This document shows, piece by piece, positions 2,625 through 16,103 of a stretch of 64,000 bases of DNA (its first letter is position 1; the number at the start of each line of letters is the position of its first letter). Location: contig NZ_WJFD01000005.1 in the NCBI RefSeq assembly GCF_009647655.1, positions 310,001 through 374,000 of the forward strand, read 5' to 3'. This stretch comes from Chitinophaga sp. SYP-B3965 (GTDB lineage Bacteria > Bacteroidota > Bacteroidia > Chitinophagales > Chitinophagaceae). A model generated the notes under the pieces. It saw only the letters and a list, made by a program, of their open reading frames with translations. It did no database searches and had not been told where the DNA came from. Position numbers and translations under genes: made by a program.

Positions 2625-4235
2625 ATGAAAATTACTTTTTCTACAATACAGGTATCCCTCCTGGTGCTCTTGTTACTGGGCGCAGGATGTACCAAAAACT
2701 TTAAGGACTACAATACCAATCCGCATCAGGCAACGGATGAACAGATGCAGCAGGATAACCTGTCCACCGGTTCTTTCTTCGTGCAGATGCAGAAGAACGT
2801 TTTTCCTATCGCACAGCAACCTGATTTCGGGGATGAAGTATACCAGACTTCCCAGAACCTGGTAGGAGATATTTATTCCGGTTACATGGGTGCTACCAAT
2901 AACTGGTATTCCGGTTCTAACAACACAACATACGACCTGATACCACAATGGTACGGACAAGCTTTTTCCCGCGCATTCCTGGGTATCATGCCCGGATGGA
3001 AAGCGATCAGGAAAGTAACGGAAACAGAAGCACCACAAGTATACGCGATGGCCACTATTGTAAAAGTAGAAGCCATGCATCGTGCTACAGACACATACGG
3101 CCCGCTGCCTTATCTGAATTTCGGCAATGGTGCATTGCAGAATAAATACGACAGCCAGAAGGATATCTACTACAAGTTCTTCGACGAACTGGATGAAGCA
3201 ATCGCTATCCTCACAGATTTCAATACGAGGAATCCTACAGCCACCGCATTGGATAAATACGATTTCATCTATAAGGGCAACATCCGCAGCTGGATCAAAT
3301 TTGCCAATTCACTCAAGCTGAGACTGGCTATCCGCATCGCATATGTAGAACCTGCCAAAGCAAAAGAAGAAGCAGAATCAGCTGTTAATCACCCCATCGG
3401 TGTAATGACAGATGCGGCAGATATTGCGCAATTGCAACATTCCTCCGGTTTATCCTACAACCATCCCCTGTACATCATCAGTGAAAACTTTGATGATATC
3501 AGGATGGGCGCCAACATGGAATCCTTCCTCACAGGTTACAATGATCCCCGTCTGCCTAAATACTTCAATGCAGCATCCGATGGACTTTATCATGGTATCC
3601 GCAATGGTATCACCATCACCAACAAAGCAGACTATGCAGAAGGGCCTTTCTCTAAAGTGAATATATCCGCTACTGCGCCGATCGTATGGATGAATCCAGC
3701 AGAGGTTTATTTTCTGCGGGCAGAAGGTGCATTGCGCCAATGGAACATGGGCAGCGATGCGCAGACCTTGTATGAAAGTGGTATCCGTACTTCTTTCGCT
3801 GTAAATGGTGTTACTGCTAATGCAGCTGATTACTACAGCAACAGCACCGCTATTCCAGCTGCCTATGCAGACTCAAAAAGAGCAGGTAATAACATCGCAT
3901 CACCTAATCCAACCCTTCTCAGTACCATCACTATAAAATGGGATGTTACTGCTACCACCGAGAAGAACCTGGAGCGGATCATTACACAAAAATGGATCGC
4001 TATGTTCCCGGATGGTCAGGAAGCATGGTCTGAATTCCGTCGTACAGGGTATCCTAAAGTATTTCCTGTGGTCGTGAATAACAGTAAAGGCCTTATCAAT
4101 ACAACCCTCCAGATCCGCCGTTTGCCATTTGCGGCTACGGAATACCAGACAAATCCTGCCGGAGTTACCGACGCAGCTGCTTTGTTAGGTGGTGCTGATA
4201 ATGGTGGTACGCCACTTTGGTGGGATAGAAATTAG
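2625..4235 (+). CDS. SusD/RagB-family glycan-binding lipoprotein (SusD-like_2 type)
   Basis: 536 residues. The N-terminus is a lipoprotein signal with lipobox LGAGC (Cys22), so it should be anchored and displayed at the outer membrane. The helical body with the NSLKLRLAIRIAYV segment and the WIAMFPDGQEAWSEFRRTGYP block near the C-terminus is characteristic of the SusD-like_2 group, as is the WWD ending. It partners the SusC protein encoded 21 bp upstream and caps its barrel while binding the oligosaccharide. Together with the GH18 and two DUF1735 lipoproteins downstream it forms one operon. Sequence does not define the ligand; GH18 context favours a chitobiose-core or other GlcNAc-containing glycan. 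Confidence 0.93.
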   Translation: MKITFSTIQVSLLVLLLLGAGCTKNFKDYNTNPHQATDEQMQQDNLSTGSFFVQMQKNVFPIAQQPDFGDEVYQTSQNLVGDIYSGYMGATNNWYSGSNNTTYDLIPQWYGQAFSRAFLGIMPGWKAIRKVTETEAPQVYAMATIVKVEAMHRATDTYGPLPYLNFGNGALQNKYDSQKDIYYKFFDELDEAIAILTDFNTRNPTATALDKYDFIYKGNIRSWIKFANSLKLRLAIRIAYVEPAKAKEEAESAVNHPIGVMTDAADIAQLQHSSGLSYNHPLYIISENFDDIRMGANMESFLTGYNDPRLPKYFNAASDGLYHGIRNGITITNKADYAEGPFSKVNISATAPIVWMNPAEVYFLRAEGALRQWNMGSDAQTLYESGIRTSFAVNGVTANAADYYSNSTAIPAAYADSKRAGNNIASPNPTLLSTITIKWDVTATTEKNLERIITQKWIAMFPDGQEAWSEFRRTGYPKVFPVVVNNSKGLINTTLQIRRLPFAATEYQTNPAGVTDAAALLGGADNGGTPLWWDRN

Positions 4236-4262
4236 AACGTTTAACGCTCAAATCTTGATGAG

Positions 4263-5291
4263 ATGAAAACAAAATTATTTTATTTATCGCTTCTGTGTTT
4301 AGCTGGTCTGATGACCGCCTGTGAAAAACAGAATACGCCGGAAGCTTTACAGATAGAGGTTCCACGTGCATATTCAGCACAGTATTATGCTAACCTCAGA
4401 GCATATAAGAAAACAGACCACCAGGTATTTTACGGTTGGTTTGCTGCCTATGGTAACAAAGAAGGGGTAACTGCAGATTACAAACAATCTCCTTCCTATG
4501 GTGAGCACATCGCAGGATTGCCGGACAGTCTTGATTTTTGCAGCCTGTGGAGCGGCGTACCTTCCTTAAGGAAAGGAGACTCCCTGAGTACCTATAATCC
4601 TATTGCCTACAGCGAAATGCGGTATGCGATGGAAGTAAAAGGCATTAAAATGCTGCTCCCTGAAATTACACGGATGCAGAAATATGCCTGGCTTACATTG
4701 GATGATGCCGGTATTAAGAAATATGGTGATTACCTGATAAAGATGGTGATGGATAATGATGTGGATGGTCTTGACCTCGACTATGAACCAGAAGGCGATT
4801 GGCTTACAGGAGACAAATTCCTTCAACTGGTAGTTTACATCGGGCAATACCTCGGACCTAAATCCAGCAATCCTGATAAATACCTGGTAATAGATTATTA
4901 CACACAGATACCACCAGCAGCTGTAGAGCCTTATATCAATTTCCTTGTGAACCAGTCGTACACACAAGGTACAACCTCTTCTTCCGCCACATTCTTGCAA
5001 GGCAGATACAACTCGGTGTCCTGGTGCCCTCCAAAGAAGTTCATCGTAACAGAGAACTTTGGTGAATGGTGGGAAAACGGTGGTTCTCCTTTTACAGAAG
5101 CAAATGGTAATACCCTCACAAAAGCAGGTCTCCAAATGTATTCACTGGAAGGATTTACCCGCTGGAACCCAACACAGGGAAAGAAAGGAGGCTTTGGTGC
5201 ATTCTATTTCGACAGGGATTATAACAATAGTGCAGGCCCCTATTCAACGGTGCGTAGTTGCATCCAGATCGCTAATCCGGCCGTACAATAA
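4263..5291 (+). CDS. GH18 endo-beta-N-acetylglucosaminidase-like lipoprotein
   Basis: 342 residues with a lipoprotein signal (Cys20, LMTAC). The GH18 signature DGLDLDYE is intact at residues 168-175, with Glu175 as the expected acid and Asp171/Asp173 supporting substrate-assisted catalysis. The short single-barrel form lacking a chitin-binding or insertion domain resembles the endo-beta-N-acetylglucosaminidases of Bacteroidota N-glycan loci rather than processive chitinases. It lies between SusD and two DUF1735 surface lipoproteins, a neighbourhood known from the high-mannose N-glycan locus of Bacteroides thetaiotaomicron (BT3983-BT3987 type). Likely role: cell-surface release of N-glycans at the chitobiose core before import by the upstream SusCD pair. 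Specificity between N-glycan and chitin is not settled by the motif. Confidence 0.85.
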   Translation: MKTKLFYLSLLCLAGLMTACEKQNTPEALQIEVPRAYSAQYYANLRAYKKTDHQVFYGWFAAYGNKEGVTADYKQSPSYGEHIAGLPDSLDFCSLWSGVPSLRKGDSLSTYNPIAYSEMRYAMEVKGIKMLLPEITRMQKYAWLTLDDAGIKKYGDYLIKMVMDNDVDGLDLDYEPEGDWLTGDKFLQLVVYIGQYLGPKSSNPDKYLVIDYYTQIPPAAVEPYINFLVNQSYTQGTTSSSATFLQGRYNSVSWCPPKKFIVTENFGEWWENGGSPFTEANGNTLTKAGLQMYSLEGFTRWNPTQGKKGGFGAFYFDRDYNNSAGPYSTVRSCIQIANPAVQ

Positions 5292-5317
5292 GTGTTGATC
5301 ACCTTAAAACAAACAAA

Positions 5318-6484
5318 ATGAAGAAGTTAAACTATAAAATATGGTTGATAACAGCTGCAGTGTTCTGTGTGATCGCAGTAGTTGTTCCAGCCTGCCAAAA
5401 GTATGTGGACTTTAAGGACGTGATCCTGATGACCGGTACGGAAAATGATCCGCTGGTGAAGTTCACCGTGGAGAATGCACCATCCAGCTTTTCAGTAAGT
5501 GCCACCGCTACAGCAAAAGTAGAAAGTGATATCACTGTGAATTTCGCTATTGATTCCAGCCTGGTAACAAAGTATAACAAGGAAGTGAATGCGAATTACT
5601 TCTTCCCTCCGGAAGGAAGTTATGAGCTGTCCGCCGCCAGTGGTACCATCAAAGCAGGTACACATATCTCTGAACCCGTTACCGTAAGGATCCTTTCCAC
5701 CGCCAACCTGGTAGATGGAAAACCTTACATCATTCCGGTGACCATTAAGAGCACTACAGGCTCATTAGATGTACTGGAAACTTCACGTACCATTTATCTC
5801 AAAGTGGCCCGTGTAATAGATTTCAAATCTATAGACATTTCCAGTCCAAACTTCTACGCCACGTATCCATTTACAGAACCATATAACAATGTAACGCAGT
5901 ATACTTTTGAGATCAAGTGTTATATCAACGATTGGCACACGGGTAATCCTCCTATCAGTCGTTTGTGCAACTGGGGTCCGTTGGATGAATCATTGCCTAA
6001 CCTGCTGCGTTTTGGAGAAGCTGGTAGCAAAGTGAACCAACTGCAGTGGGTATCCTCAGAAGGTAGTGTGTTTTCCACTACAGAGTTTGCTACTAAAACA
6101 TGGTACACCATTTCCTGTGTGTATGATGGAAATTCCTACAAGCTTTATATCAACGGAAAGCTGGATGGTAGTTTCGAAGGTGCAGGCAGGGTATACCAGT
6201 TTGCTATGCTGGAACTGGGTATGTCCTACAGTGGATACCAAACCTCACAGCGTTTCCTGGGTCGTACTGCTGAAGTACGTTTCTGGAGCAGGGCATTGTC
6301 TATGACAGAGATCCAGGAAGGACTCTGTGGTGTAGATGCTGCAGCTAACGGTCTGGTGGCTTATTGGAAAATGAACGAAGGCAGTGGCAATACTTTCTTC
6401 GATCGTACCGGCCACGGACGTGACCTGACATGGCCCAAGGCCGTTCTGTGGAATGCAGACAGTGACAACAAATGTGCTCAATAA
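5318..6484 (+). CDS. DUF1735 (BT_3987-like) lipoprotein with LamG-like domain
   Basis: 388 residues; lipoprotein-type signal with Cys26 (VVPAC). Residues about 35-165 match the BT_3987-like N-terminal domain pattern (PDSSLVxxYN-type loop seen here as IDSSLVTKYNKE, followed by a beta strand-rich Ig-like fold). Residues about 185-385 form a LamG/concanavalin-like jelly roll (KTWYTISCVYDGNSYKLYING, FLGRTAEVRFWSRALS, LVAYWKMNEG), a carbohydrate-binding type fold. No catalytic motif was seen, so it is probably a surface glycan-binding protein of the upstream SusCD/GH18 operon, 26 bp after the GH18 gene. The next gene has the same N-terminal domain joined to a different binding module. Confidence 0.82.
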   Translation: MKKLNYKIWLITAAVFCVIAVVVPACQKYVDFKDVILMTGTENDPLVKFTVENAPSSFSVSATATAKVESDITVNFAIDSSLVTKYNKEVNANYFFPPEGSYELSAASGTIKAGTHISEPVTVRILSTANLVDGKPYIIPVTIKSTTGSLDVLETSRTIYLKVARVIDFKSIDISSPNFYATYPFTEPYNNVTQYTFEIKCYINDWHTGNPPISRLCNWGPLDESLPNLLRFGEAGSKVNQLQWVSSEGSVFSTTEFATKTWYTISCVYDGNSYKLYINGKLDGSFEGAGRVYQFAMLELGMSYSGYQTSQRFLGRTAEVRFWSRALSMTEIQEGLCGVDAAANGLVAYWKMNEGSGNTFFDRTGHGRDLTWPKAVLWNADSDNKCAQ

Positions 6485-6498
6485 AAAAAGGATATTAC

Positions 6499-7503
6499 AT
6501 GAGGAACTCAATATATAAAAACCGCTATGCAGCACTTCTTTTACTGTCAGTATCCTTACTGGGCGCATGTAAAAAAGATGAGCTGGAATCGCAGGACCTG
6601 CTGGTGTTCATGACAGGTGAATATGGATCTTACAATAATGAGATCGTTATTCCCTTCATACATACACCCATCGATGTATCTGGCAACAGTGTTGTGAAAC
6701 TGGCTGTTTCCGCTACACGCGAAGTAGCAGCTGATGTGGATGTTACACTTACGCCAGATACCAGCCTGGTAGCACAATACAACAAGGCGAACAAAACCAA
6801 TGCCCTGGCGCTTCCTGCCAGTGCGTACAAGATCGTCAATCCGAAAAAATACAAGATCCCTTCCGGAAAGTTGTCATCAGACTCCGTAGAGATCGAGATC
6901 ACTACACCTGCAGCACTGACCAATCCTGGTGGATATATTTTACCACTCACTATCGGCAATATTGAAGGTGCAGACCGTGGTGTAAAGATCAGCGCAAACA
7001 GGCGTACTACTTATCTGTTCGTTACCTATGCCTTCAATAACGTTCAGGCTACACAGGTACCGGTTGCCGGAACACTGGGTGCAAGAACAGGTTGGGTATC
7101 ATCAGTAAGCAACACAACGGCTGGTGCTTTAGGCCCCGCAATGCTGGATGGCAGTAATACTACGTACTGGAGATCCAGTAATAGTTCTACCGCAGCAAAA
7201 TGGGTTATTATAGATATGGCATCCGTACAGGAGATCAAAGGCATCCGTATTAATCCGAATTATACGTCTGCCAATGAAAATGCTACTGCCATCACCGTTT
7301 CCACCAGTCAGGATAATATTACCTGGACGGTACAGGGTGCATGGAAAGGTACAGGACCCGCAACAGGATCTACTGCTGCAAATCCTGATCTGAAAGGCAT
7401 CAACTTTATCGCCCCGGTACAGGCACGTTATTTCCGGCTGGACATTACAGCATGGGTAAGTGGCAGCAGGGTAGGGATCGGTGAATTGAATGTGATCAAA
7501 TAG
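6499..7503 (+). CDS. DUF1735 lipoprotein with F5/8 type C (discoidin-like) domain
   Basis: 334 residues from the ATG at 6499, preferred because an AAAGGA stretch precedes it, because it gives a normal lipoprotein signal (LLGAC, Cys24), and because the upstream ATG at 6472 would overlap the previous gene. Residues about 30-175 are a second BT_3987-like domain (TPDTSLVAQYNKANKT). The C-terminal third is a discoidin/F5/8C-type carbohydrate-binding module (AMLDGSNTTYWRSS, WVIIDMASVQEIKGIRI, ARYFRLDITAW). No catalytic residues are evident; a surface glycan-binding role is likely. It is the last gene of the GH18 operon and is followed within 30 bp by a strong hairpin. Confidence 0.83.
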   Translation: MRNSIYKNRYAALLLLSVSLLGACKKDELESQDLLVFMTGEYGSYNNEIVIPFIHTPIDVSGNSVVKLAVSATREVAADVDVTLTPDTSLVAQYNKANKTNALALPASAYKIVNPKKYKIPSGKLSSDSVEIEITTPAALTNPGGYILPLTIGNIEGADRGVKISANRRTTYLFVTYAFNNVQATQVPVAGTLGARTGWVSSVSNTTAGALGPAMLDGSNTTYWRSSNSSTAAKWVIIDMASVQEIKGIRINPNYTSANENATAITVSTSQDNITWTVQGAWKGTGPATGSTAANPDLKGINFIAPVQARYFRLDITAWVSGSRVGIGELNVIK

Positions 7504-7525
7504 ACTTTAGCAGGGAATACATAAT

Positions 7526-7570
7526 AAGAAGGGCCATGTGTATTATACACTCAGGCCCTTCTTCATTTTG
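7526..7570 (+). terminator. Rho-independent-like terminator of the GH18 operon
   Basis: A perfect 10-bp stem AAGAAGGGCC / GGCCCTTCTT (7526-7535 with 7554-7563) is extended by an inner GTGT/ACAC pairing. It is followed by CATTTTG rather than a pure T-run. It lies between the last DUF1735 gene and the GH5 gene and separates the two units. Confidence 0.7.
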
Positions 7571-7622
7571 ATTAACGACGGAAATTGTATATTTTTCATT
7601 TCCACGTTAAATAGCTACCCTA

Positions 7623-8750
7623 ATGGAACGTCGTTCTTTTCTTAAAAATACCGCATTATTAACCGCAGGTTTAGGCCTTGCTGGTTCGTCAGCCTTTGCA
7701 GCAGCTGGCAACAAACTACCTAATTGGAAAGGGTTTAACCTTCTCGATTTTTTCACACCCATACCAGCAGGCACTGGTAAAAAAACAACAGAAGATCATT
7801 TCCGCTGGATGCGGGATTGGGGTTTTGATTTCGTGCGTATCCCCATCGCTTATCCCAGTTACCTGGCTTTTGACCGTAGCAAACAGATCACTCCGGAAGA
7901 AGTATATAAGATAGATCCGGAAAGAGTAGAAGCAATTGAGAAACTGGTGGCGATGGCGCATCAATACAATATGCATGTAAGCCTCAACCTTCACCGGGCG
8001 CCTGGTTATTGCATCAATGCCGGTTTCCATGAACCTTATAACTTATGGAAAGATGAAGAAGCGCAAAAGGCGTTTTATTTCCACTGGAACTTCTGGGCAA
8101 AACGATTTAAAAATATATCCGCTCAAAAGATCAGCTTTGATCTGTTGAACGAACCTGCTATGCGGGAAGATATGAATGATCAGCATTCCAGGATAACCGC
8201 CGTGCCGGGGCAGATCTATCGTAAAGTAGCGCAGGAAGCTGCAGCAGCCATCCGAAAGGAAAACCCTTCACGCCTGATCATTGCCGATGGAAATAATGTA
8301 GGTACATCCGTGATCCCGGAGATCATGGATCTGGATATTGCGCAAAGCTGTCGCGGATACCATCCGGGAAAGATCTCACATTACAAAGCCCCATGGGCCA
8401 ACAAAGATGTTGAAAACCTTCCTGAACCTAAATGGCCCGGGAAGGTGGGTAACGAATACCTGAGCAGAGAAATGCTGGAAAAGCATTACCAGCCATGGAT
8501 AGATCTGGTGAAAAAAGGAGTAGGTGTACATTGCGGAGAATGTGGCTGCTGGAATAAAACGCCGCATGCCGTTTTCCTGGCCTGGTTCGGTGATGTACTG
8601 GATATCCTGCAAAGTAATAAGATCGGTTTTGGGTTATGGGAATTCAGTGGAGATTTTGGTGTGCTCAATTCCCGCAGGGCGGATGTGCAGTATGAAGATT
8701 GGTACGGACAGAAATTAGACAGAAAACTACTCACATTACTACAAAAATAA
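7623..8750 (+). CDS. GH5-family glycoside hydrolase with Tat signal
   Basis: 375 residues. The N-terminus is a twin-arginine signal (ERRSFLKN followed by a hydrophobic run to AFAAA), so the folded enzyme is likely exported. The cellulase-type TIM barrel shows WMRDWGFDFVRIP near residue 65, NLHRAPG at about 123, the acid/base motif LLNEP with Glu177, the HP pair in GYHPG at about 247, and a probable nucleophile Glu306 in HCGECG. A WEFSGDFG strand closes the barrel. The family cleaves beta-linked glucans, mannans or related glycosides; substrate cannot be deduced. It starts a unit with the isomerase-like gene 4 bp downstream. It might belong functionally with the upstream N-glycan locus, but the terminator in between argues for separate transcription. 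Confidence 0.86.
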   Translation: MERRSFLKNTALLTAGLGLAGSSAFAAAGNKLPNWKGFNLLDFFTPIPAGTGKKTTEDHFRWMRDWGFDFVRIPIAYPSYLAFDRSKQITPEEVYKIDPERVEAIEKLVAMAHQYNMHVSLNLHRAPGYCINAGFHEPYNLWKDEEAQKAFYFHWNFWAKRFKNISAQKISFDLLNEPAMREDMNDQHSRITAVPGQIYRKVAQEAAAAIRKENPSRLIIADGNNVGTSVIPEIMDLDIAQSCRGYHPGKISHYKAPWANKDVENLPEPKWPGKVGNEYLSREMLEKHYQPWIDLVKKGVGVHCGECGCWNKTPHAVFLAWFGDVLDILQSNKIGFGLWEFSGDFGVLNSRRADVQYEDWYGQKLDRKLLTLLQK

Positions 8751-8754
8751 TACT

Positions 8755-9612
8755 ATGGCCATTTCCAGACGCAGGTTCCTTCAACAAACGGGCCTTCTTT
8801 CCGGTGGATTATTACTGCATTCCACAGGTTTCGCAGCCATGAATAAAAGACCAATCGGCCTGCAACTATGGACACTCCGAAAAGAATTAACTGGTGATGT
8901 TCCCGATGTGATTGCGAAAGTAGCAGCAGCCGGTTATACGGACCTTGAGACATTTGGAGGTGGCGGAGATTTCTTCCGGATGAAACCTGCTGCTTTCAGG
9001 AAATTACTGGATGATCAGGGACTCGTGTCTTCCAGCGGCCACTATTACTACCCACCGGATGAAACATTCGATGGTTTGATAAAAGAATTTATTACAGCCG
9101 CAGGCATCCTGCAACAAAAATACATCGTTATACCAGCTATGCCAGCTGAGTTGTATAAAACGGTTGATGGACTAAAAAGAGGTGCCGCGCAACTTAACAG
9201 GGCAGGACGGTTATGCCGCGAAGCTAACCTGCAATTAGCTTATCACAATCATGCTTTCGAGTTCGCCACATTTGGATCACAAACAGGATATGACATTTTG
9301 CTGGCAGAAACAGATCCAACCCTCGTGAAGATGGAATTGGATATCTATTTTGCTGTTCAGGCAGGACAAGATCCAATAGCCTTATTCAATAAAGCCCCCG
9401 GCCGTTTTGCCCTACTGCATATGAAAGATATGGACAAACAGAACCCTGATCTGAATACAGAAGTAGGCAGCGGGAAGATCGATTTCAAAAACATCTTTCA
9501 GCATATCCGTGCTGCCGGGGTAGATCGTATTTTTGTTGAACAGGAAGATTTTGCGATGGACCCTTATCAGAGTTTGCGGAAAAGTGCGGATTATGTCAAA
9601 AAGCTACTGTAA
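8755..9612 (+). CDS. Exported sugar-phosphate-isomerase/epimerase-like protein (xylose-isomerase-like TIM barrel)
   Basis: 285 residues, beginning with a Tat-type signal (SRRRFLQQTG plus hydrophobic stretch). The body is an AP-endonuclease-2/xylose-isomerase-like TIM barrel: IGLQLWTLR at the start, LAYHNHAFEF, MELDIYFAVQAG, LLHMKDMD and FVEQEDF, which supply the His, Asp and Glu ligands used for a divalent metal. Members epimerize or isomerize free sugars or keto-sugars; Tat-exported relatives are common in Bacteroidota beside Gfo/Idh oxidoreductases. It starts 4 bp after the GH5 stop, so the two are co-transcribed. The exact substrate is unknown. Confidence 0.82.
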   Translation: MAISRRRFLQQTGLLSGGLLLHSTGFAAMNKRPIGLQLWTLRKELTGDVPDVIAKVAAAGYTDLETFGGGGDFFRMKPAAFRKLLDDQGLVSSSGHYYYPPDETFDGLIKEFITAAGILQQKYIVIPAMPAELYKTVDGLKRGAAQLNRAGRLCREANLQLAYHNHAFEFATFGSQTGYDILLAETDPTLVKMELDIYFAVQAGQDPIALFNKAPGRFALLHMKDMDKQNPDLNTEVGSGKIDFKNIFQHIRAAGVDRIFVEQEDFAMDPYQSLRKSADYVKKLL

Positions 9613-9936
9613 GCAGGGGCTTTATCGATGACAAAGAGATACGAAGTGATACAAATATGTTTGTGTTTTTAGCGCCATTTTATCTATATCCTAGCCCTTT
9701 CGAAAAACTTTGTTTTTAAGTATCAATTACTTACCTTGTATATGTAAGCCTCAAACCCACGTATGATGAAGAAGATGTACTATTTCTTCCCAGAAGATTT
9801 AATGATATAATCCAAGGTTTATTTTAATCATTACCCGGCCTCTTAAGATGAAGTGTTACTCATGTTTCGAGAACTATTTTGAACAAATAGAATCCTGCAT
9901 TTTAATAACATAACAATTTTCATTCAACCATCCCTT
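9613..9936. other. A+T-rich intergenic region before the defence-like pair
   Basis: This 324-bp stretch has no supported gene. It holds a candidate promoter (listed separately) and two tiny ORFs beginning ATG at 9763 (15 codons) and 9848 (21 codons, with a CxxC). Neither can be supported as a gene. No tRNA, terminator or obvious direct repeat marking an insertion edge was seen. Confidence 0.6.
9709..9739 (+). promoter_or_regulatory. Candidate Bacteroidota-type promoter for the BrxD-BrxHI pair
   Basis: TTTG at 9709-9712 and TACCTTGT at 9732-9739, spaced by 19 bp, resemble the Bacteroidota -33 TTTG / -7 TAnnTTTG promoter with mismatches in the last two positions of the -7 element. The implied leader would be near 190 nt, which is long, so support is modest. 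Confidence 0.35.
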
Positions 9937-12798
9937 ATGAAACTATTGCAAATTCTTGAGAACTATGATATTGCTTTGTTAGACCAACTTTCTACAGATA
10001 AAATTGATGAAGCCATTAACCTAAGATTACCCCAGGCAGTTATTGTACAGGAAATTATCTCAGCTTTAAGCTCTCAGTCTTATATATCAAATAAGATCCT
10101 TTATGGCAAGCCTCCTACATTCGCCATCCTAAACTTAATCCTCCAATCTCCTGACTTCATGGTTGAAGTAGAAGGTTTTCGAACAAGGGTTTTGGATTAT
10201 ATAAAGGAACTCTCCACAAGGGCCGCTCAAAATAGAACTTCCCAGGAGAAGAATGCTCAACTCTATGTAAAAATCCTAAGAAAGGCTTGGGAGAACGATG
10301 GCTTGATTGACAAGAGTGAAGCACATATCCTTGAATTGGTGAAACAAGAACTTGGTATCTGGGATCGGGAGCATTTCACGCTAATACATGATGAATCGAT
10401 TATTAGTATGTGGGATATTGACCAGGAGTATTATCAGGTAAGAAACCAATTACTCACAACGGGAATAATACTTACCCATGAGAATAAATATGTTATCGCC
10501 GATGAAGTAGCCATTCAGATCAGGAAGTCGCTTGGGATTGACATTATGGATGATTCTTACAAAAGACTTCTAGCCAGCCTAAGTAAAGAAGACATGACCG
10601 TGGCATTAAATTATTACCAGCTAAATGTCACTGGTTCAAAGGATATTCTTATTGAAAGATTATTAAATAGTTTGATTCCACCAGCAGAAATGTTAGGGTT
10701 GTTTCATTTGGAAGATTTGCGTGAACTCTGCAGGAGGAAAAACATTCAGGTTAGCGGCGCAAAAAACATGGTGATTGCCAACATTATCCAATTTTTTGAC
10801 GAGGATCTGGATTTGCATGCGAATCAAAAAGATGATACACCACCCTTACCCCCCGAACCTGAGTTAAGAGAAATGGACCAGGAAATCTATGGAAAAATAT
10901 TGGCAAATCTTACTGGTCAGCAGCTGTATGATATCCTGAATCAAAATGTGCTAATGACCAGTGGTTCTAAAGATGAGAAAATACGGCGTATTCTTGATAG
11001 CCATCTTTCAGAAAGATCGGTATTTCATTATCTTCGGAAAGAAGATTTGGGACAGCTATGCAGGAAATTCGGTTTCCCCGTTTCAGGATCTAAACAAGAA
11101 CTGATTGACCGTGTTTTGGATTATGTTCCTTCTCCCTCTACGCCCCCTGTCACGCTGCAATCAGATCAGAGTATATCAATTGTAGAAAACATCCCAGCTA
11201 TCCAGGTGTCAGATAGACGCGAGATTCAGGTTAATGCAGACCCTGTTGCTTTTCCTCCAAATTGGGACGAAATCAATTCCATGTTCACAGATCTGGAGCA
11301 GGATGAAAAAATTGTTCTGGCGATTTTAAAGGAAGCAAAATCCATTACTGAACAGGACCTATCACGAATTGTCGTTAAATATAAACTTGGCTGGTTCCTT
11401 CATAAAGCGCACATGGCAGAACTAATGGCTAAACTTAAGAGAGATAAGAAACCTTACATTCAAATAAAAAGTGTTCAAAACGCTAATATATACCAGTGGG
11501 TAGCCAATGAAAATTCAGATGATGGAGTCCTGGAAAAAAGATCTGCCCGTGACATTATTGATGCTTTACGCCATGGAGTTGTTCCCCGGCATAACTTGGG
11601 CTTGTTGATGGTTGGTCAGCAGACTGCGAGGAATCATTTATCAGAGATATTATTGGAGGTTAATTCGAACAAATCTCATTTCAAATTTATCAGAGGACAA
11701 TATGGATCTGGTAAAACTTTTCTTTGTTCATGGTTGAAAGAGTTCGCCTTAAGTAATGAGTTTGCTGTTTCATTCATGAATATCAGCCATGATCAACCGC
11801 TGTCAGATCTACCCATCTTCTTTTCCGGTATGATTAATGGATTGCGAACACCTGAGAAAACGGATTCGAGTTCTTTGGTCGACATTCTTGAATCATGGTT
11901 ATTGAATATTCATAATAAAACGGCAAAGCTAGAAGGCGTAGGTATAGCTCAGGCTGGTGGTCAGCATAATTTAAGTACGAGTGTTCAAAAATCTATTGAG
12001 GTAGAACTAGCTAATCTGAGTGACATCGAACCGGGGTTTTCAATGGCAATGAGAGCATTTTATGAGGGTAAAGTTAAAGGAGATATGGAATTGGTCTCTA
12101 ATGCTGTTGCATGGATTACAGGTAGCCGGGCACTTTCATCCCAGGCTTTGAGAGATATTGGGGTTAAAGGATATCTGGAAGCAAACAACGTATTTCCGAG
12201 GATGCGTGCCATTTTGGAAATTATTAGTGGTGCCCGCTATAAAGGGTTGCTTCTTTTGGTTGATGAATTGGAGCTTGTTCGTAAATTCCCACATGTACGC
12301 CAACGGGAACAGGCACTGGAAACGCTTCGATTGCTTATTGATGAAGCGGGAAGGAATGCACTTCCGGGATGCTTGGTCATATTTACGGGAACAGATGAGT
12401 TCTTCGAGGATGAACGTTATGGACTCAAAAGCTATGAGGCATTGGCAGAGCGGGTAATGACTCCTTTCACCCATGAAAGCTTCGTTAGTATGAGACAGCC
12501 TATTATTAGCTTGGAATCTCTTGATCAACAAAGGCTAACGAGTGTGCTTGTGAAAATTCGTGATTTGTATGGCATTGCCTATAGCTGGGATGCTAAGCAG
12601 TTTGCGGATGATGAAGTCATCGTGAAGCTGATCGAGGAATGGACGGTGTTTGGAGAAGAGAACATCGATAGGAAACCAAGGCCAGTTTTGAGGGAGTTTA
12701 TACAGATGCTTGATTTGTGTGAAGAGAATAAAGGGGTAAACCTTTCCCAGTTTTTAAAGAAGCCAAAACTATCTGAGTCTACATTCAACACAAATTAA
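9937..12798 (+). CDS. BrxD-like (DUF2791-type) P-loop ATPase with SAP-like repeats
   Basis: 953 residues. The C-terminal half is a P-loop ATPase of the BREX BrxD type: Walker A GQYGSGKT at 587-594, Walker B LLLLVDE at 771-777, and the late ENIDRKPRPVLREFIQMLD block. The N-terminal half is unusual. A helical, TerB-like segment lies near 106-150 (AWENDGLIDKSEA). Four SAP-like helix-extended-helix units follow at about 214-245, 255-288, 325-356 and 365-398, each with a xGSKxxLIxRxL or SGAKN-type core. A winged-helix-like segment lies near 452-525. SAP motifs usually bind A+T-rich DNA. The helicase gene starts 10 bp downstream. BrxD and BrxHI are known accessory partners in some BREX phage-defence systems; here they stand alone. 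Base composition is visibly more A+T-rich than the flanks, suggesting acquisition. The role in defence is inferred. Confidence 0.72.
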   Translation: MKLLQILENYDIALLDQLSTDKIDEAINLRLPQAVIVQEIISALSSQSYISNKILYGKPPTFAILNLILQSPDFMVEVEGFRTRVLDYIKELSTRAAQNRTSQEKNAQLYVKILRKAWENDGLIDKSEAHILELVKQELGIWDREHFTLIHDESIISMWDIDQEYYQVRNQLLTTGIILTHENKYVIADEVAIQIRKSLGIDIMDDSYKRLLASLSKEDMTVALNYYQLNVTGSKDILIERLLNSLIPPAEMLGLFHLEDLRELCRRKNIQVSGAKNMVIANIIQFFDEDLDLHANQKDDTPPLPPEPELREMDQEIYGKILANLTGQQLYDILNQNVLMTSGSKDEKIRRILDSHLSERSVFHYLRKEDLGQLCRKFGFPVSGSKQELIDRVLDYVPSPSTPPVTLQSDQSISIVENIPAIQVSDRREIQVNADPVAFPPNWDEINSMFTDLEQDEKIVLAILKEAKSITEQDLSRIVVKYKLGWFLHKAHMAELMAKLKRDKKPYIQIKSVQNANIYQWVANENSDDGVLEKRSARDIIDALRHGVVPRHNLGLLMVGQQTARNHLSEILLEVNSNKSHFKFIRGQYGSGKTFLCSWLKEFALSNEFAVSFMNISHDQPLSDLPIFFSGMINGLRTPEKTDSSSLVDILESWLLNIHNKTAKLEGVGIAQAGGQHNLSTSVQKSIEVELANLSDIEPGFSMAMRAFYEGKVKGDMELVSNAVAWITGSRALSSQALRDIGVKGYLEANNVFPRMRAILEIISGARYKGLLLLVDELELVRKFPHVRQREQALETLRLLIDEAGRNALPGCLVIFTGTDEFFEDERYGLKSYEALAERVMTPFTHESFVSMRQPIISLESLDQQRLTSVLVKIRDLYGIAYSWDAKQFADDEVIVKLIEEWTVFGEENIDRKPRPVLREFIQMLDLCEENKGVNLSQFLKKPKLSESTFNTN

Positions 12799-12808
12799 TA
12801 TCCCTGAT

Positions 12809-14983
12809 ATGTCGCTGAATAAATTACACCCCAGATTGCAAGATTATGTAAAAGATCAAAAATGGAATGATTTAAGACCTATACAAAAAGCGGCATTCGA
12901 TCCTATTCATGAGGGGAAAAGTTGCATCATAGAAGCCCCTACGTCCGGAGGAAAGACGGAAGCTGTTTTATTCCCATTATTGACCCGTATCTCAGCATCA
13001 AAATCATCAGGCTTTAAAGTCCTGTATATAGCTCCATTAAAGGCATTGCTAAATGATCTTGCATTAAGGGTAATTCCCTATGCGAAAATGTGTTACATGG
13101 AAGCATTTAAATGGCATGGGGATGTAAGCCAGGGTGAAAAAGTACAGCAAATGCTTTTTCCTTCTGATATTCTTTTGACAACACCCGAATCTATTGAGGC
13201 CATTCTACTTCGGAAATCTAATTGGGTGGAAGTTTTTAAGAACCTGGAGACAATTGTGATAGATGAAGCGCATTATTTTGCTCTTACTGAACGCGGGTCC
13301 CATCTGATATCCCTTTTGGAGAGGATTGAAACAGATATAAAGAAACAACCACAGCGTATAGCGGTTACAGCAACCATTGGTAATCCACATGAATTATTAA
13401 GCTGGTTGATGGGTAAAAGGGCAGGAGGTGAAAGTATTCAAGCTAGTAGTGAGGTTGAAAAAGAGAGGGATTTTAAGGTTCATTATTTTATGGAGGAAAA
13501 TCCCGAACGTCCTATGCTTCAGGATAGTTTATATACTATGTTGGGGCAAAAAGATAAGTCAATTGTCTTTGAACGTTCTCGTTCCTGGACGGAAGAAACT
13601 GCAGCAAGGATAAATGAACGGAACCTCGCGAGTCAGACGCGGTCTCCTGTGAGGGTTAGAACTCACCATTCATCGATCAGCAAGCGATTAAGAGAGGAGG
13701 CTGAAAGCTCTATTAAGAAGAAAACTGAAATGTCGATTGATGCTATAATTAGCACTTCTACTTTAGAATTGGGAATCGATATTGGGGATCTCGATCAGGT
13801 AATACAAATTGGAGGATTAAATAGTTCTGGCTCTTTTCTTCAGCGTGTTGGCAGAACTGGTCGAAGAAAGGACCGTCCACAGTATTTTAGAGGGTTATGT
13901 ACAGAGGCGGATGAATTAGTACTGCTGACTGGTTGTGTTAGCCTTGGGTTGCAGCGTAATTCAGAGAATATCTTGTTTCCAAAGAGAGCCTTCCATATTC
14001 TTGCTCACCAGATTATATGTCTTTCCCTCCAAAAATTTGGTGCTACAGCTGAGCACATGTGGGAAATTCTGTCCGGAGCCTCCTGTTTCTCGAAAATAAC
14101 CAGAGAAGAATTCGACATGTTAGTTAATAATATGTTACAAGATGATTTCCTGCGGCTTGCTGGCGGAAATGTATTATTGGTTAGTAATAGAACAGAAAAG
14201 GAGTTTCTACGGGCCAACTGGAAGAGACTTTTCGCCATTTTTGATACAGGTCCAATGTATAATGTCGTGGATGGGAAAAGGATTATAGGAACACTTGATT
14301 CGGGATTTGCCTTAATACAGCAATTGCCGTTTGTATTTGTATTGGGAGGTCAGGAATGGAACGCACTCAAAATTGACCATGAGATGCAACAGGTATCAGT
14401 GGAAAGGAATGAAACTGGAAAGGCCCCCAAATGGAAAGCAATAAGCAGTTATGATATACCATTTGAATTAGCACAAGAGATTGGTAGGGTCTTGATGAGT
14501 GATACAATTCTTGATTTTCTTGATCAGCCAGCTCAGCGAATGATGGAGGCTGAGCGTAACGCACACTATCATCTAAACTGGAATAGCCGGAAATGGATAT
14601 TCGATTCATCAGAGATAGATGGGAGAATTTATCTCTGGACCTTTGCCGGCGACAAGATTAATCGGACTATATCTAATCTTCTTTGTACAAAAACGGAATT
14701 AGAACCGGATTATGATTATAAGAAGGTTATTCTTGATTTTGGAAAAAAGGAGCCAATGTCTATAACTGATATTGGCAACCTTATTTTGTCCCTAAAATCT
14801 AGGACCGAACAAGATCTTAGGGAACTAATAGAGCCTAATATAGATGTCAAATGGTTTTCTAAGTTTTCTGAATGTCTGCCACCTTCATTGGCCAAGAAAA
14901 CGATTTGCGAAAAAGGGTTTGATTTTCAGGGAACTATCCGGGAATTAAATAAGATAAGTTTCGACCATGCCCCTGCAAATTAA
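12809..14983 (+). CDS. BrxHI/Lhr-like superfamily 2 DNA helicase
   Basis: 724 residues. SF2 motifs are complete: Q-like RPIQKAAF, motif I APTSGGKT (43-50), motif II DEAH (152-155), motif III TAT (187-189), motif V STLELGIDIGDLD near 313-325 and motif VI QRVGRTGRR (345-353). The APTSGGKTEA and TLELGIDIGDLD wording is that of Lhr-type helicases, to which BREX BrxHI belongs; the protein is about half the length of full Lhr and ends with a moderate C-terminal extension (WH-like and unassigned). It is translated 10 bp after the BrxD-like ATPase, so the two probably form a complex or pathway that processes invading DNA. It ends 10 bp from the stop of the convergent FG-GAP gene. A purely repair role cannot be excluded. 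Confidence 0.8.
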   Translation: MSLNKLHPRLQDYVKDQKWNDLRPIQKAAFDPIHEGKSCIIEAPTSGGKTEAVLFPLLTRISASKSSGFKVLYIAPLKALLNDLALRVIPYAKMCYMEAFKWHGDVSQGEKVQQMLFPSDILLTTPESIEAILLRKSNWVEVFKNLETIVIDEAHYFALTERGSHLISLLERIETDIKKQPQRIAVTATIGNPHELLSWLMGKRAGGESIQASSEVEKERDFKVHYFMEENPERPMLQDSLYTMLGQKDKSIVFERSRSWTEETAARINERNLASQTRSPVRVRTHHSSISKRLREEAESSIKKKTEMSIDAIISTSTLELGIDIGDLDQVIQIGGLNSSGSFLQRVGRTGRRKDRPQYFRGLCTEADELVLLTGCVSLGLQRNSENILFPKRAFHILAHQIICLSLQKFGATAEHMWEILSGASCFSKITREEFDMLVNNMLQDDFLRLAGGNVLLVSNRTEKEFLRANWKRLFAIFDTGPMYNVVDGKRIIGTLDSGFALIQQLPFVFVLGGQEWNALKIDHEMQQVSVERNETGKAPKWKAISSYDIPFELAQEIGRVLMSDTILDFLDQPAQRMMEAERNAHYHLNWNSRKWIFDSSEIDGRIYLWTFAGDKINRTISNLLCTKTELEPDYDYKKVILDFGKKEPMSITDIGNLILSLKSRTEQDLRELIEPNIDVKWFSKFSECLPPSLAKKTICEKGFDFQGTIRELNKISFDHAPAN

Positions 14984-14993
14984 GTAGTGTATA

Positions 14994-16103
14994 TTATCTA
15001 ACCTGCTCAAAGAAATACACTCCTTTCTTATTTGAAGTAATAACATCCTTCAACCCATCACCATTTATATCCTCCACCACAAAACTATTCCCGATCCCGG
15101 AATCATTATCGATCTCATGTGCTATCCAGGCAGGAGATTTCCCAGGTTTGTATTCAAACCAATATAACACAGCAGGATCAAGTGCCCCGGGATCTTTTTC
15201 ATTATGAGCGCCAAAACGTTTGCCGGTAATAAGATCAGGGTGGCCATCGTTGTTGATATCTTCGAAAGCCATGGCATGCGTTTGAGAAAATTGCATACTG
15301 ATTTCGTGCGTAGTAAAACCCTGAGCCTGCTGTTCATGCCACCAGATGCCATAATCATGTGCGGATGAACTGACTACATCAACATCCCCGTCTCCATCCG
15401 CATCCAGTACAAACATATTACCACAATCTTTTCCAAGATTGGCAGCATGGAAGGTCCAATCGGTTTGTTTTGGATCAGCAGGAGCTTCCCACCAGCCGGA
15501 AGTGATGATCACATCCTTTCTGCCATCTTTATTCATATCTCCCCAACCAAGACCATGTGTATAGCGGTTAGTAGCCCTGAGGCTGTCTCTGCTGATGATA
15601 TTCCTTGTCCAGGTTGTATCACCTTTCAGCCATAAAACCTGCCGCGCTTTAGAATCGTTACAGATGAGGTCCTTTTTCCCATCGAGGTCTACATCTACCA
15701 GGATAGGCGTTTCAATGCCTGCAGATTGCAGGATAACACGTGATTTCCAGAGGGTGTTCTTCTTGCCCGGATTCTCATACCATACGCAAATACCACCCGG
15801 TTGGTCAAATCGGATGAGGTCAACCCATCCATCATTATTTACATCCGTACAGAAGTTCAGGAAACTGGTACTATAACGGGGTACAGGATTCAGGGTATCT
15901 GCATGAATGAGATGGCGTTTCCAGGTGGGGGCTTCAAACCAGTAAATGCCAGCCAGGATATCTGTTTTGCCATCATTGTTCACATCACCGGTGGCAGCGC
16001 CTTCTGAGATGAAAGTGCTACTGATGGTATGTTTCTTAAACGTAACCTGTGCCTGCACTGCATGACTGAACAATAAGAAGCTAAAGAATAGGATCGTTTT
16101 CAT
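14994..16103 (-). CDS. Secreted FG-GAP/VCBS repeat beta-propeller protein
   Basis: 369 residues with a cleavable signal peptide (hydrophobic core, AVQAQ cleavage region). Seven calcium-loop repeats of the D-x-[DN]-x-DG-x-x-D form are visible (DVNNDGKTDI, DVNNDGWVDL, DVDLDGKKDL, DMNKDGRKDV, DADGDGDVDV, DINNDGHPDL, DINGDGLKDV), as in integrin-like FG-GAP propellers. No catalytic residues are recognisable. Such proteins in Bacteroidota are periplasmic or secreted and of unknown ligand, often beside sugar loci. It is convergent with the helicase gene and divergent from the acyltransferase gene, with only 45 bp between the two starts. Confidence 0.8.
   Translation of the reverse strand: MKTILFFSFLLFSHAVQAQVTFKKHTISSTFISEGAATGDVNNDGKTDILAGIYWFEAPTWKRHLIHADTLNPVPRYSTSFLNFCTDVNNDGWVDLIRFDQPGGICVWYENPGKKNTLWKSRVILQSAGIETPILVDVDLDGKKDLICNDSKARQVLWLKGDTTWTRNIISRDSLRATNRYTHGLGWGDMNKDGRKDVIITSGWWEAPADPKQTDWTFHAANLGKDCGNMFVLDADGDGDVDVVSSSAHDYGIWWHEQQAQGFTTHEISMQFSQTHAMAFEDINNDGHPDLITGKRFGAHNEKDPGALDPAVLYWFEYKPGKSPAWIAHEIDNDSGIGNSFVVEDINGDGLKDVITSNKKGVYFFEQVR

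What the first reader, a model, noticed from the sequence alone, without database searches (positions are those of the whole stretch)
9937..14983. Stand-alone BrxD-BrxHI-like pair with a four-SAP-repeat DNA-binding front half
Seen: a P-loop ATPase of BrxD type with Walker A at 587-594 and Walker B at 771-777, a TerB-like segment, four SAP-like units and a winged-helix-like segment, followed 10 bp later by a BrxHI/Lhr-like helicase. Known: BrxD and BrxHI occur as accessory genes of some BREX phage-defence systems, together with PglX-type methyltransferase, PglZ and BrxC/PglY. None of those is present within 50 kb downstream or 10 kb upstream here. Inference: a compact two-gene defence module where the SAP front replaces the missing DNA-recognition parts. 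It is A+T-richer than its surroundings and sits between unrelated sugar genes.
Basis: partly seen in the sequence, partly recalled or inferred. Interest (0 to 1): 0.75.

Follow-up and report, generated by a model that had tools for sequence, protein, structure and literature searches.

The report
Two-gene ATPase–helicase cassette, SAP front
A Chitinophaga bacterium carries a mobile two-gene cassette, a DNA-binding ATPase fused to extra reader domains plus its partner helicase, that looks like a third relative of two known anti-virus systems; its defence role is inferred from relatives and patchy spread, and has not been tested.

Summary
ORF 9937-12798 (953 aa) is a BrxD-type ATPase with an added ~530-residue front: a winged-helix-like region with a weakly TerB-like insert, four SAP units in two pairs, and a second winged helix. 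ORF 12809-14983 is a BrxHI-type helicase. No BREX core relatives lie in the window or in 13 related loci. This is not Shango by the tests run: no SngA is detected, and a 37-row tree puts seven fused pairs in their own clade, outside 22 Shango and 7 BREX pairs. The full-length fused gene occurs in 9 of 79 genomes of the genus (own included) and sporadically beyond, mostly at differing sites, with one empty allele and one 86-residue remnant: gained and lost, not a fixed repair gene. The first ~290 residues recur on two single-gene proteins of the same phylum whose other end is possibly a FokI-like nuclease, so the front may be a portable DNA-targeting module. Best reading: an unnamed third lineage of the BrxD-BrxHI engine, probably anti-invader. 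Function untested.

The parts
9937..12798 (+). Gene 1: front module fused to a BrxD-type AAA+ ATPase, 953 aa
9970..10542 (+). Residues 12-202: winged-helix-like fold with a helical insert
   Evidence: AF2 of residues 1-292, mean pLDDT 89.4; VIA matches: TFIIH p52 6tru_A Z 8.6, 99 residues, rmsd 4.7; ORC2 1w5t_A (its residues 296-401) Z 7.4, 92 residues, rmsd 3.0. Foldseek alone gave nothing at E <= 0.001
10237..10416 (+). TerB-like helical insert, residues about 101-160
   Evidence: weak: hhalign to SngA lands on its TerB region, E 0.0024, probability 12%; no Pfam TerB hit
10564..10677 (+). SAP unit 1 (residues 210-247)
10699..10806 (+). SAP unit 2 (255-290)
10891..11004 (+). SAP unit 3 (319-356); units 3-4 are a duplicate of units 1-2
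11023..11130 (+). SAP unit 4 (363-398)
   Evidence: best Pfam SAP stretch 366-397
11251..11511 (+). Second winged helix (439-525)
   Evidence: AF2 secondary structure; VIA 7z1o_O Z 6.8, 5gpy_A Z 6.6
11533..12759 (+). BrxD-type ORC/Cdc6-like AAA+ ATPase (533-941)
   Evidence: Pfam 1.5e-96; best VIA match Aeropyrum ORC2 1w5t_A Z 8.1, 223 residues, rmsd 5.3, on a low-confidence model
11695..11718 (+). Walker A GQYGSGKT (587-594)
12247..12267 (+). Walker B LLLLVDE (771-777)
12809..14983 (+). Gene 2: BrxHI/Lhr-like helicase, 724 aa
   Evidence: PADLOC BrxHI 6.7e-160, SngC 4.8e-132
12875..13387 (+). DEAD/DEAH helicase core, domain 1
   Evidence: PTSGGKT and DEAH motifs
13532..13867 (+). Helicase C-terminal domain
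   Evidence: QRVGRTGR motif
13958..14416 (+). Lhr winged-helix domain
   Evidence: PF19306 2.4e-6, 27.5 bits against a cut-off of 27

Best explanation
This is a mobile, self-contained two-gene anti-invader cassette and a third lineage of the BrxD-BrxHI engine beside BREX-2/6 and Shango. Shown: domain make-up, ATPase and helicase motifs in the copies checked, tight linkage of the two genes, patchy gain and loss, own clade, and sharing of the first ~290 residues with putative nuclease proteins. Inferred: the front (winged helix with TerB-like insert, two SAP pairs, second winged helix) selects foreign or abnormal DNA. This places the ORC/Cdc6-like ATPase on DNA, where it oligomerises and loads or switches on the helicase; the helicase then unwinds or strips the target and blocks its replication. 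No nuclease domain was detected in either gene by Pfam, so any degradation would be left to host enzymes.
For: ATPase and helicase are relatives of the corresponding proteins of two defence systems, one of them tested against phages (Shango, PMC10250203, passages). Combined tree of 37 rows: fused 7 at 100/100, BREX 7 at 99/98, Shango 22 at 100/100. Spread: 9 of 79 genomes of the genus, own included, carry it full length, 1 more a remnant; 3 besides the own genome of 294 in a family draw; 1 besides the own of 395 in a phylum draw. The helicase follows the fused gene directly in the window and in 13 of 14 related loci; the 14th is the remnant, and in L033 the helicase is two overlapping ORFs. 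Among 13 loci only two pairs of loci share a neighbour at 50% identity or more. Empty allele: G044 against G061, matching flank blocks 93-96% identical, 5,397 bp with the pair in place of 628 bp. Remnant: G069 keeps only the first 86 codons at the site that holds the pair in G016 and G017. Front on stand-alone 516-aa proteins in G159 and G170 (1.2e-23, 2.0e-20; hit back 8.3e-15), whose C-terminal half weakly resembles FokI in one of the two (0.0051, 16.7 bits against a cut-off of 25) and shares an ADG...LLWDNK pattern with an archaeal homologue. Neighbours: among 112 ORFs within 6 kb of 12 pairs, PADLOC families PDC-S27, PDC-S23, PDC-S05, PD-T7-4 and SoFic match strongly; 85 control ORFs gave four ZorB-named (MotB) models only.
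Against: No phage data exist for this lineage. The window's neighbours seen one by one are carbohydrate, FG-GAP, acyltransferase and transport genes, not defence genes. The neighbour support is soft: PDC families are only candidates, PDC-S27 occurs in 11 of 12 and PDC-S23 in 9 of 12 of these genomes, and the PDC-S23 gene beside the G044 pair has a counterpart in the empty allele, so it belongs to the old flank. The G044/G061 comparison also shows further indels nearby, so it is not a single clean event. No relative in IMG/VR viral contigs; integrases next to the pair were not looked for systematically. Oligomerisation and helicase loading are borrowed from ORC/Cdc6 and from a suggestion in PMC12839542. 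The TerB assignment is weak. BREX sampling in the tree is small (7, all from plasmids), and the program warned that the long fused and Shango stems meet.
Confidence: 0.6

Rival explanations
1. A DNA-repair or replication-restart cassette of the cell: the SAP/winged-helix front recognises damaged DNA and the Lhr-like helicase processes it; not immunity.
For: The helicase also resembles Lhr and ligase-associated repair helicases (NCBIfam TIGR04121 6.3e-71, well below its cut-off). SAP domains and ORC-like ATPases are common in repair and replication (recalled).
Against: Full-length gene absent from 70 of 79 genomes of the genus, one of which holds a remnant; differing sites, an empty allele and a remnant. 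The best-scoring PADLOC families are those of defence systems.
Confidence: 0.15
2. A derived Shango: SngA fused to SngB with SAP units added, working exactly like Shango.
For: SngB and SngC models match. The fused front (~530 aa) is as long as the SngA model (528 positions), though SngA genes seen here run from 426 to 1120 aa (a 356-aa one at a contig end left aside). The best alignment of the first 292 residues to SngA falls on its TerB region. Three-gene Shango-like sets occur in the same genus.
Against: No SngA match at E <= 10 in the front half, while the same model finds SngA in the 4 plasmid Shango first genes tested that carry TerB_N. TerB_N and TerB_C are not found in the front. The fused clade lies outside all 22 Shango pairs. 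BrxD and BrxHI models score higher than SngB and SngC (270 against 197, 532 against 440 bits). hhalign of the whole front gives probability 0.04% to the second Shango group's first gene and 3.1%, at another place, to the first group's. No SngA relative by tblastn in 14 fused loci.
Confidence: 0.15
3. A plasmid or integrative-element exclusion system: the pair attacks incoming plasmid or conjugative DNA rather than phage.
For: Relatives of the ATPase lie on many plasmids (690 of 72,556 records), as competition genes of mobile elements often do. The SAP-nuclease relatives lie near integrases in two of three loci (not every ORF of the third was scanned).
Against: No direct evidence. The front half was found in no plasmid record and the fused protein in no viral contig.
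Confidence: 0.1

Closest known systems
Shango (SngA-SngB-SngC)
   Same: An ATPase of the BrxD/SngB family followed directly by an Lhr-like helicase; compact, with no methyltransferase or PglZ; a first component (here fused) that shares at most a TerB-like element.
   Different: Three genes there, two here. Of 8 Shango first genes scanned, 8 carry TerB_C and 4 TerB_N; here neither, but winged helices and four SAP units. ATPase and helicase form separate clades.
BREX type 2 / Pgl (and type 6): BrxD-BrxHI dyad
   Same: Best-scoring PADLOC models for both proteins (BrxD 1e-80, BrxHI 6.7e-160); tight gene pair in the same order.
   Different: No relative of PglX, PglY or PglZ queries in 14 fused loci, while they ring in 7 of 7 BREX loci (part of these are self-matches); BrxD is fused to a ~530-residue front; separate clade; score under the NCBI cut-off for BrxD (268 against 350 bits).
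Single-gene TerB-like/SAP proteins with a possible FokI-like nuclease end (G159, G170; and, through them, Natrinema versiforme plasmid pNVE500)
   Same: The first ~290 residues align end to end (25% identity in G159/G170; 19% in Natrinema, which is found by the G159 protein at 2e-18).
   Different: Single gene; one SAP pair (Pfam finds no SAP in Natrinema); a possible PD-(D/E)XK end in place of the second SAP pair, second winged helix, ATPase and helicase partner.

Membership tests
BREX type 2 | PglZ phosphatase/nuclease gene in the locus | tested here: not met
   No PglZ relative in the window. The genome has one PglZ-domain ORF, 532 aa on contig C10; a 517-540-aa one occurs in 13 of 13 genomes searched, so it looks like a conserved chromosomal gene, PorX-like by recall
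BREX type 2 | PglX methyltransferase and PglY (BrxC) in the locus | tested here: not met
   tblastn of BREX-2/6 PglX and PglY against the window and 13 fused loci: none; rings in the BREX loci. One BrxC_BrxD match in the genome. PglX not searched genome-wide
BREX type 2 | PglW kinase in the locus | not tested
   no PglW query was run; none among the six neighbours scanned
BREX type 2 | BrxD meets NCBI's curated BrxD cut-off | tested here: not met
   268.4 against 350 bits
BREX type 2 | BrxHI-type helicase next to BrxD | tested here: met
   6.7e-160, 10 bp downstream
Shango | SngA (TerB protein) present | tested here: not met
   No SngA at E <= 10 in the front; no SngA relative in 14 fused loci; none in own genome (whose built-in control did not ring); the model detects SngA in other loci
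Shango | ATPase and helicase belong to the SngB/SngC clades | tested here: not met
   Fused clade separate from 22 Shango pairs, 100/100
Shango | Anti-phage activity | not testable with these tools
   needs a phage challenge
SAP domain proteins | SAP domain over the curated cut-off | tested here: met
   PF02037 56.1 bits against 23.9
BrxC/BrxD-type P-loop ATPases | Pfam BrxC_BrxD over the cut-off with Walker A and B | tested here: met
   324 bits against 22.2; motifs in 12 of 12 copies
ORC/Cdc6-type AAA+ fold | clear fold match | tested here: inconclusive
   best VIA match ORC2 Z 8.1 on a model of mean pLDDT 56; the placement of BrxD in this clade is from PMC12839542 (passages)
TerB domain proteins | TerB fold or family match | tested here: inconclusive
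   No Pfam hit, hhalign probability 12%, no TerB chain among the fold matches listed

The most novel reading that the evidence does not exclude
The BrxD-BrxHI dyad is a general immune engine whose target-selecting front is exchanged in evolution: the BREX core genes, the TerB proteins of Shango, repeat proteins in Deinococcus, and here a fused winged-helix/TerB-like/four-SAP reader. The same reader is wired elsewhere, in the same phylum and by descent in an archaeon, to a FokI-like nuclease. It would thus be an autonomous invader-DNA recognition module, and the pair a third, unnamed immune system.
Probability: 0.4. Interest if true: 0.75.

Novelty: new variant of a known kind. Interest (0 to 1): 0.6.

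Why it matters
How BrxD and BrxHI contribute to BREX-2, and how Shango works, was not settled in the papers seen here. The shared front on putative nuclease proteins gives an independent handle on what is recognised.

Tried and rejected
Rejected: BREX remnant (no PglX/PglY/PglZ relatives, separate clade); fixed chromosomal repair gene; simple SngA-SngB fusion. The A+T-richness argument for recent transfer was dropped as not general.

Led nowhere: the whole-protein AF2 model was poor (mean pLDDT 56). Foldseek on the 1-292 model had no hit at E <= 0.001. IMG/VR scans with the fused alignment and with the nuclease relative confirmed no relative. The nuclease end had no PDB sequence match at E <= 10. 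The helicase search of the phage collection gave 10 records, 9 of them partial matches. Paper searches (listings) and passages of five papers (PMC12839542, PMC10250203, PMC10952713, PMC11096173, PMC12458937) showed no description of this architecture. The library holds open-licence papers only, so one elsewhere could describe it.

Limits: tallies families, not members; 69 matched, 25 were shown, so the number of neighbour genes with a defence match is unknown, and the three 'mad2' members were not counted as defence. In one search, 104 Pfam families matched and 25 were shown. Control ORFs came from six loci around the FG-GAP gene. From, the 20 strong unfused places were examined; G447 and four weak places were not. 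Of 20 BrxD-only places in the genus 6 were examined. Natrinema: Pfam finds no domain at E <= 0.1. L182 and L047 were left out of the combined tree because only their ATPase had been extracted. G045 has a second PglZ-domain ORF (794 aa), not examined.
Full report
Observation. Two co-directional genes, 9937-12798 and 12809-14983, lie 10 bp apart. The first gives Pfam BrxC_BrxD at 533-941 (1.5e-96) and SAP (2.5e-15; two stretches on their own at E <= 1), three stretches at E <= 10 when the front half is scanned alone. The second gives DEAD, Helicase_C and a borderline Lhr winged helix. PADLOC ranks BrxD (1e-80) above SngB (1.4e-58) for the first, and BrxHI (6.7e-160) above SngC (4.8e-132) for the second. 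Walker motifs are found in 12 of 12 aligned copies, window included; helicase motifs in 7 of 7 helicases checked, with DETH for DEAH in one. The window's genus is taken as Chitinophaga because contigs of same-genus genomes G044, G032 and G016 have exactly the lengths of contigs named C. rupis, C. oryziterrae and C. filiformis.

Front half. Residues 1-292 were modelled at mean pLDDT 89.4 with an alignment that held two divergent relatives; the whole protein only at 56. Residues 12-202 look like a winged helix interrupted by a helical insert: TFIIH p52 6tru_A Z 8.6 over 99 residues, Aeropyrum ORC2 1w5t_A Z 7.4 over 92 residues at 3.0 A. These are suggestive only: Foldseek gave nothing at E <= 0.001, and the tool warns that such Z values can be common. 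The insert carries a DGxID..E pattern that hhalign aligns with the TerB region of SngA, weakly. Four SAP units follow in two pairs; pair 2 duplicates pair 1 (110 against a shuffled maximum of 52 in 1000). A second winged helix at 439-525 has weak fold matches.

Not BREX, not Shango. The genome holds one BrxC_BrxD match and one PglZ-domain ORF, on another contig. tblastn with PglX, PglY, PglZ and SngA queries from BREX and Shango loci finds nothing in the 64-kb window or in 13 fused loci, and rings in 10 of 10 control loci, partly as self-matches. Shango, validated in Pseudomonas (PMC10250203, passages), is the known compact system with a related ATPase-helicase pair. In a phylum draw of 395 genomes, 26 had a BrxC_BrxD match; the 20 strong unfused places were examined, and 20 of 20 are three-gene sets with a SngA or SngA-like gene before the ATPase. 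Of 20 BrxD-only places in the genus, the 6 examined are three-gene sets too, and 4 of 4 first genes tested there carry TerB_C. In the combined tree the fused pairs (7 rows, 100/100) stand apart from BREX (7 rows, 99/98) and Shango (22 rows, 100/100); the single-protein trees agree that the fused copies are one group outside Shango. The root is not known, and the program warned of long branches meeting.

Distribution. Full-length fused genes: 9 of 79 genomes of the genus, own included, plus one 86-residue remnant in G069; 3 besides the own of 294 in a family draw, one of them on two contigs; 1 besides the own of 395 in a phylum draw. Named relatives include Chitinophaga rupis, C. oryziterrae, C. 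filiformis, Flavihumibacter cheonanensis and an Ignavibacteria MAG (11 loci from 32 pattern matches). The helicase follows directly in the window and in 13 of 14 related loci, the 14th being the remnant. Among 13 loci compared pairwise for neighbours within 6 kb, only two pairs of loci share any at 50% identity or more: G016/G017 (same site) and the window/G044 (one FG-GAP gene). G044 and G061 share flank blocks at 93-96% identity; 5,397 bp with the pair stand in place of 628 bp, with further indels a little way off. G069 keeps only the first 86 codons at the site where G016 and G017 hold the pair. This is gain and loss, as expected of immune cassettes and not of a core repair gene.

Portable front. 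A profile of the front found two single-gene 516-aa proteins (1.2e-23, 2.0e-20); one of them, used as query, finds the window back (8.3e-15 for the first SAP pair, 7.5e-5 for the second). Their C-terminal half has a sub-threshold FokI match in one of two and an ADG...LLWDNK pattern shared with a Natrinema plasmid protein. That is a PD-(D/E)XK-like signature as I recall it; no PDB sequence match backs it, and Pfam finds no domain in the Natrinema protein. In a family search around one of them 2 of 92 genomes have it. The front thus appears with two different effectors, the main reason to call it a targeting module.

Neighbourhood. Among 112 ORFs within 6 kb of 12 pairs, strong PADLOC matches include PDC-S27, PDC-S23, PDC-S05, PD-T7-4 and SoFic; 85 control ORFs gave four ZorB-named (MotB) models. 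PDC-S27 is the direct divergent neighbour in G062, whose locus also holds a Fic ORF; PDC-S23 is the neighbour in G044. These families are partly candidates, occur in 11 and 9 of the 12 genomes searched, and members could not be counted one by one, so this is weak support. The six window neighbours scanned one by one are not defence genes.

Mechanism. A 2026 survey suggests that BrxD may load or activate BrxHI, as replicative loaders do, and describes BrxD as lacking added DNA-binding domains (PMC12839542, passages). Here such domains are fused on. The simplest model: the front reads DNA, the AAA+ part assembles there, the helicase is loaded, and the invader's DNA is unwound or its replication blocked. 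Domain content is shown; every functional step is inferred. No nuclease domain was detected in either gene by Pfam, unlike the possible one in the single-gene relatives.

Verdict. Real, not BREX and not Shango by the tests run; a third lineage with a new front; probably anti-invader. New variant of a known kind.

Noticed in passing
L075 (Deinococcus psychrotolerans plasmid) 2987-15140: Two BrxD-helicase dyads in tandem with different first genes (an 851-aa LRV/HEAT protein plus a 451-aa protein; a 585-aa protein); both helicases carry the same protein accession.
   Followed up: partly
L151 1959-8935: Three SngA-like genes in a row before one SngB-SngC pair, as if the front component had been multiplied.
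   Followed up: no
L041-L046, L150, L152-L154: A divergent Shango group in the phylum: 4 of 4 first genes tested carry TerB_C but no TerB_N, and the ATPase and helicase form their own clade.
   Followed up: partly
L033 9997-12145: The helicase of one relative (G032) reads as two overlapping ORFs, i.e. a frame break or an assembly error.
   Followed up: no
L066 6003-10005 and L163 1740-7482: The SAP/FokI-like proteins lie within a few kb of a phage-type integrase in a bacterium and of a site-specific integrase in an archaeal plasmid, suggesting mobile elements.
   Followed up: partly
G000:C10:224418-224996: A PglZ-domain ORF of 517-540 aa is present in 13 of 13 genomes searched; probably the PorX-type regulator (recalled), a trap for BREX annotation by PglZ alone.
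   Followed up: no
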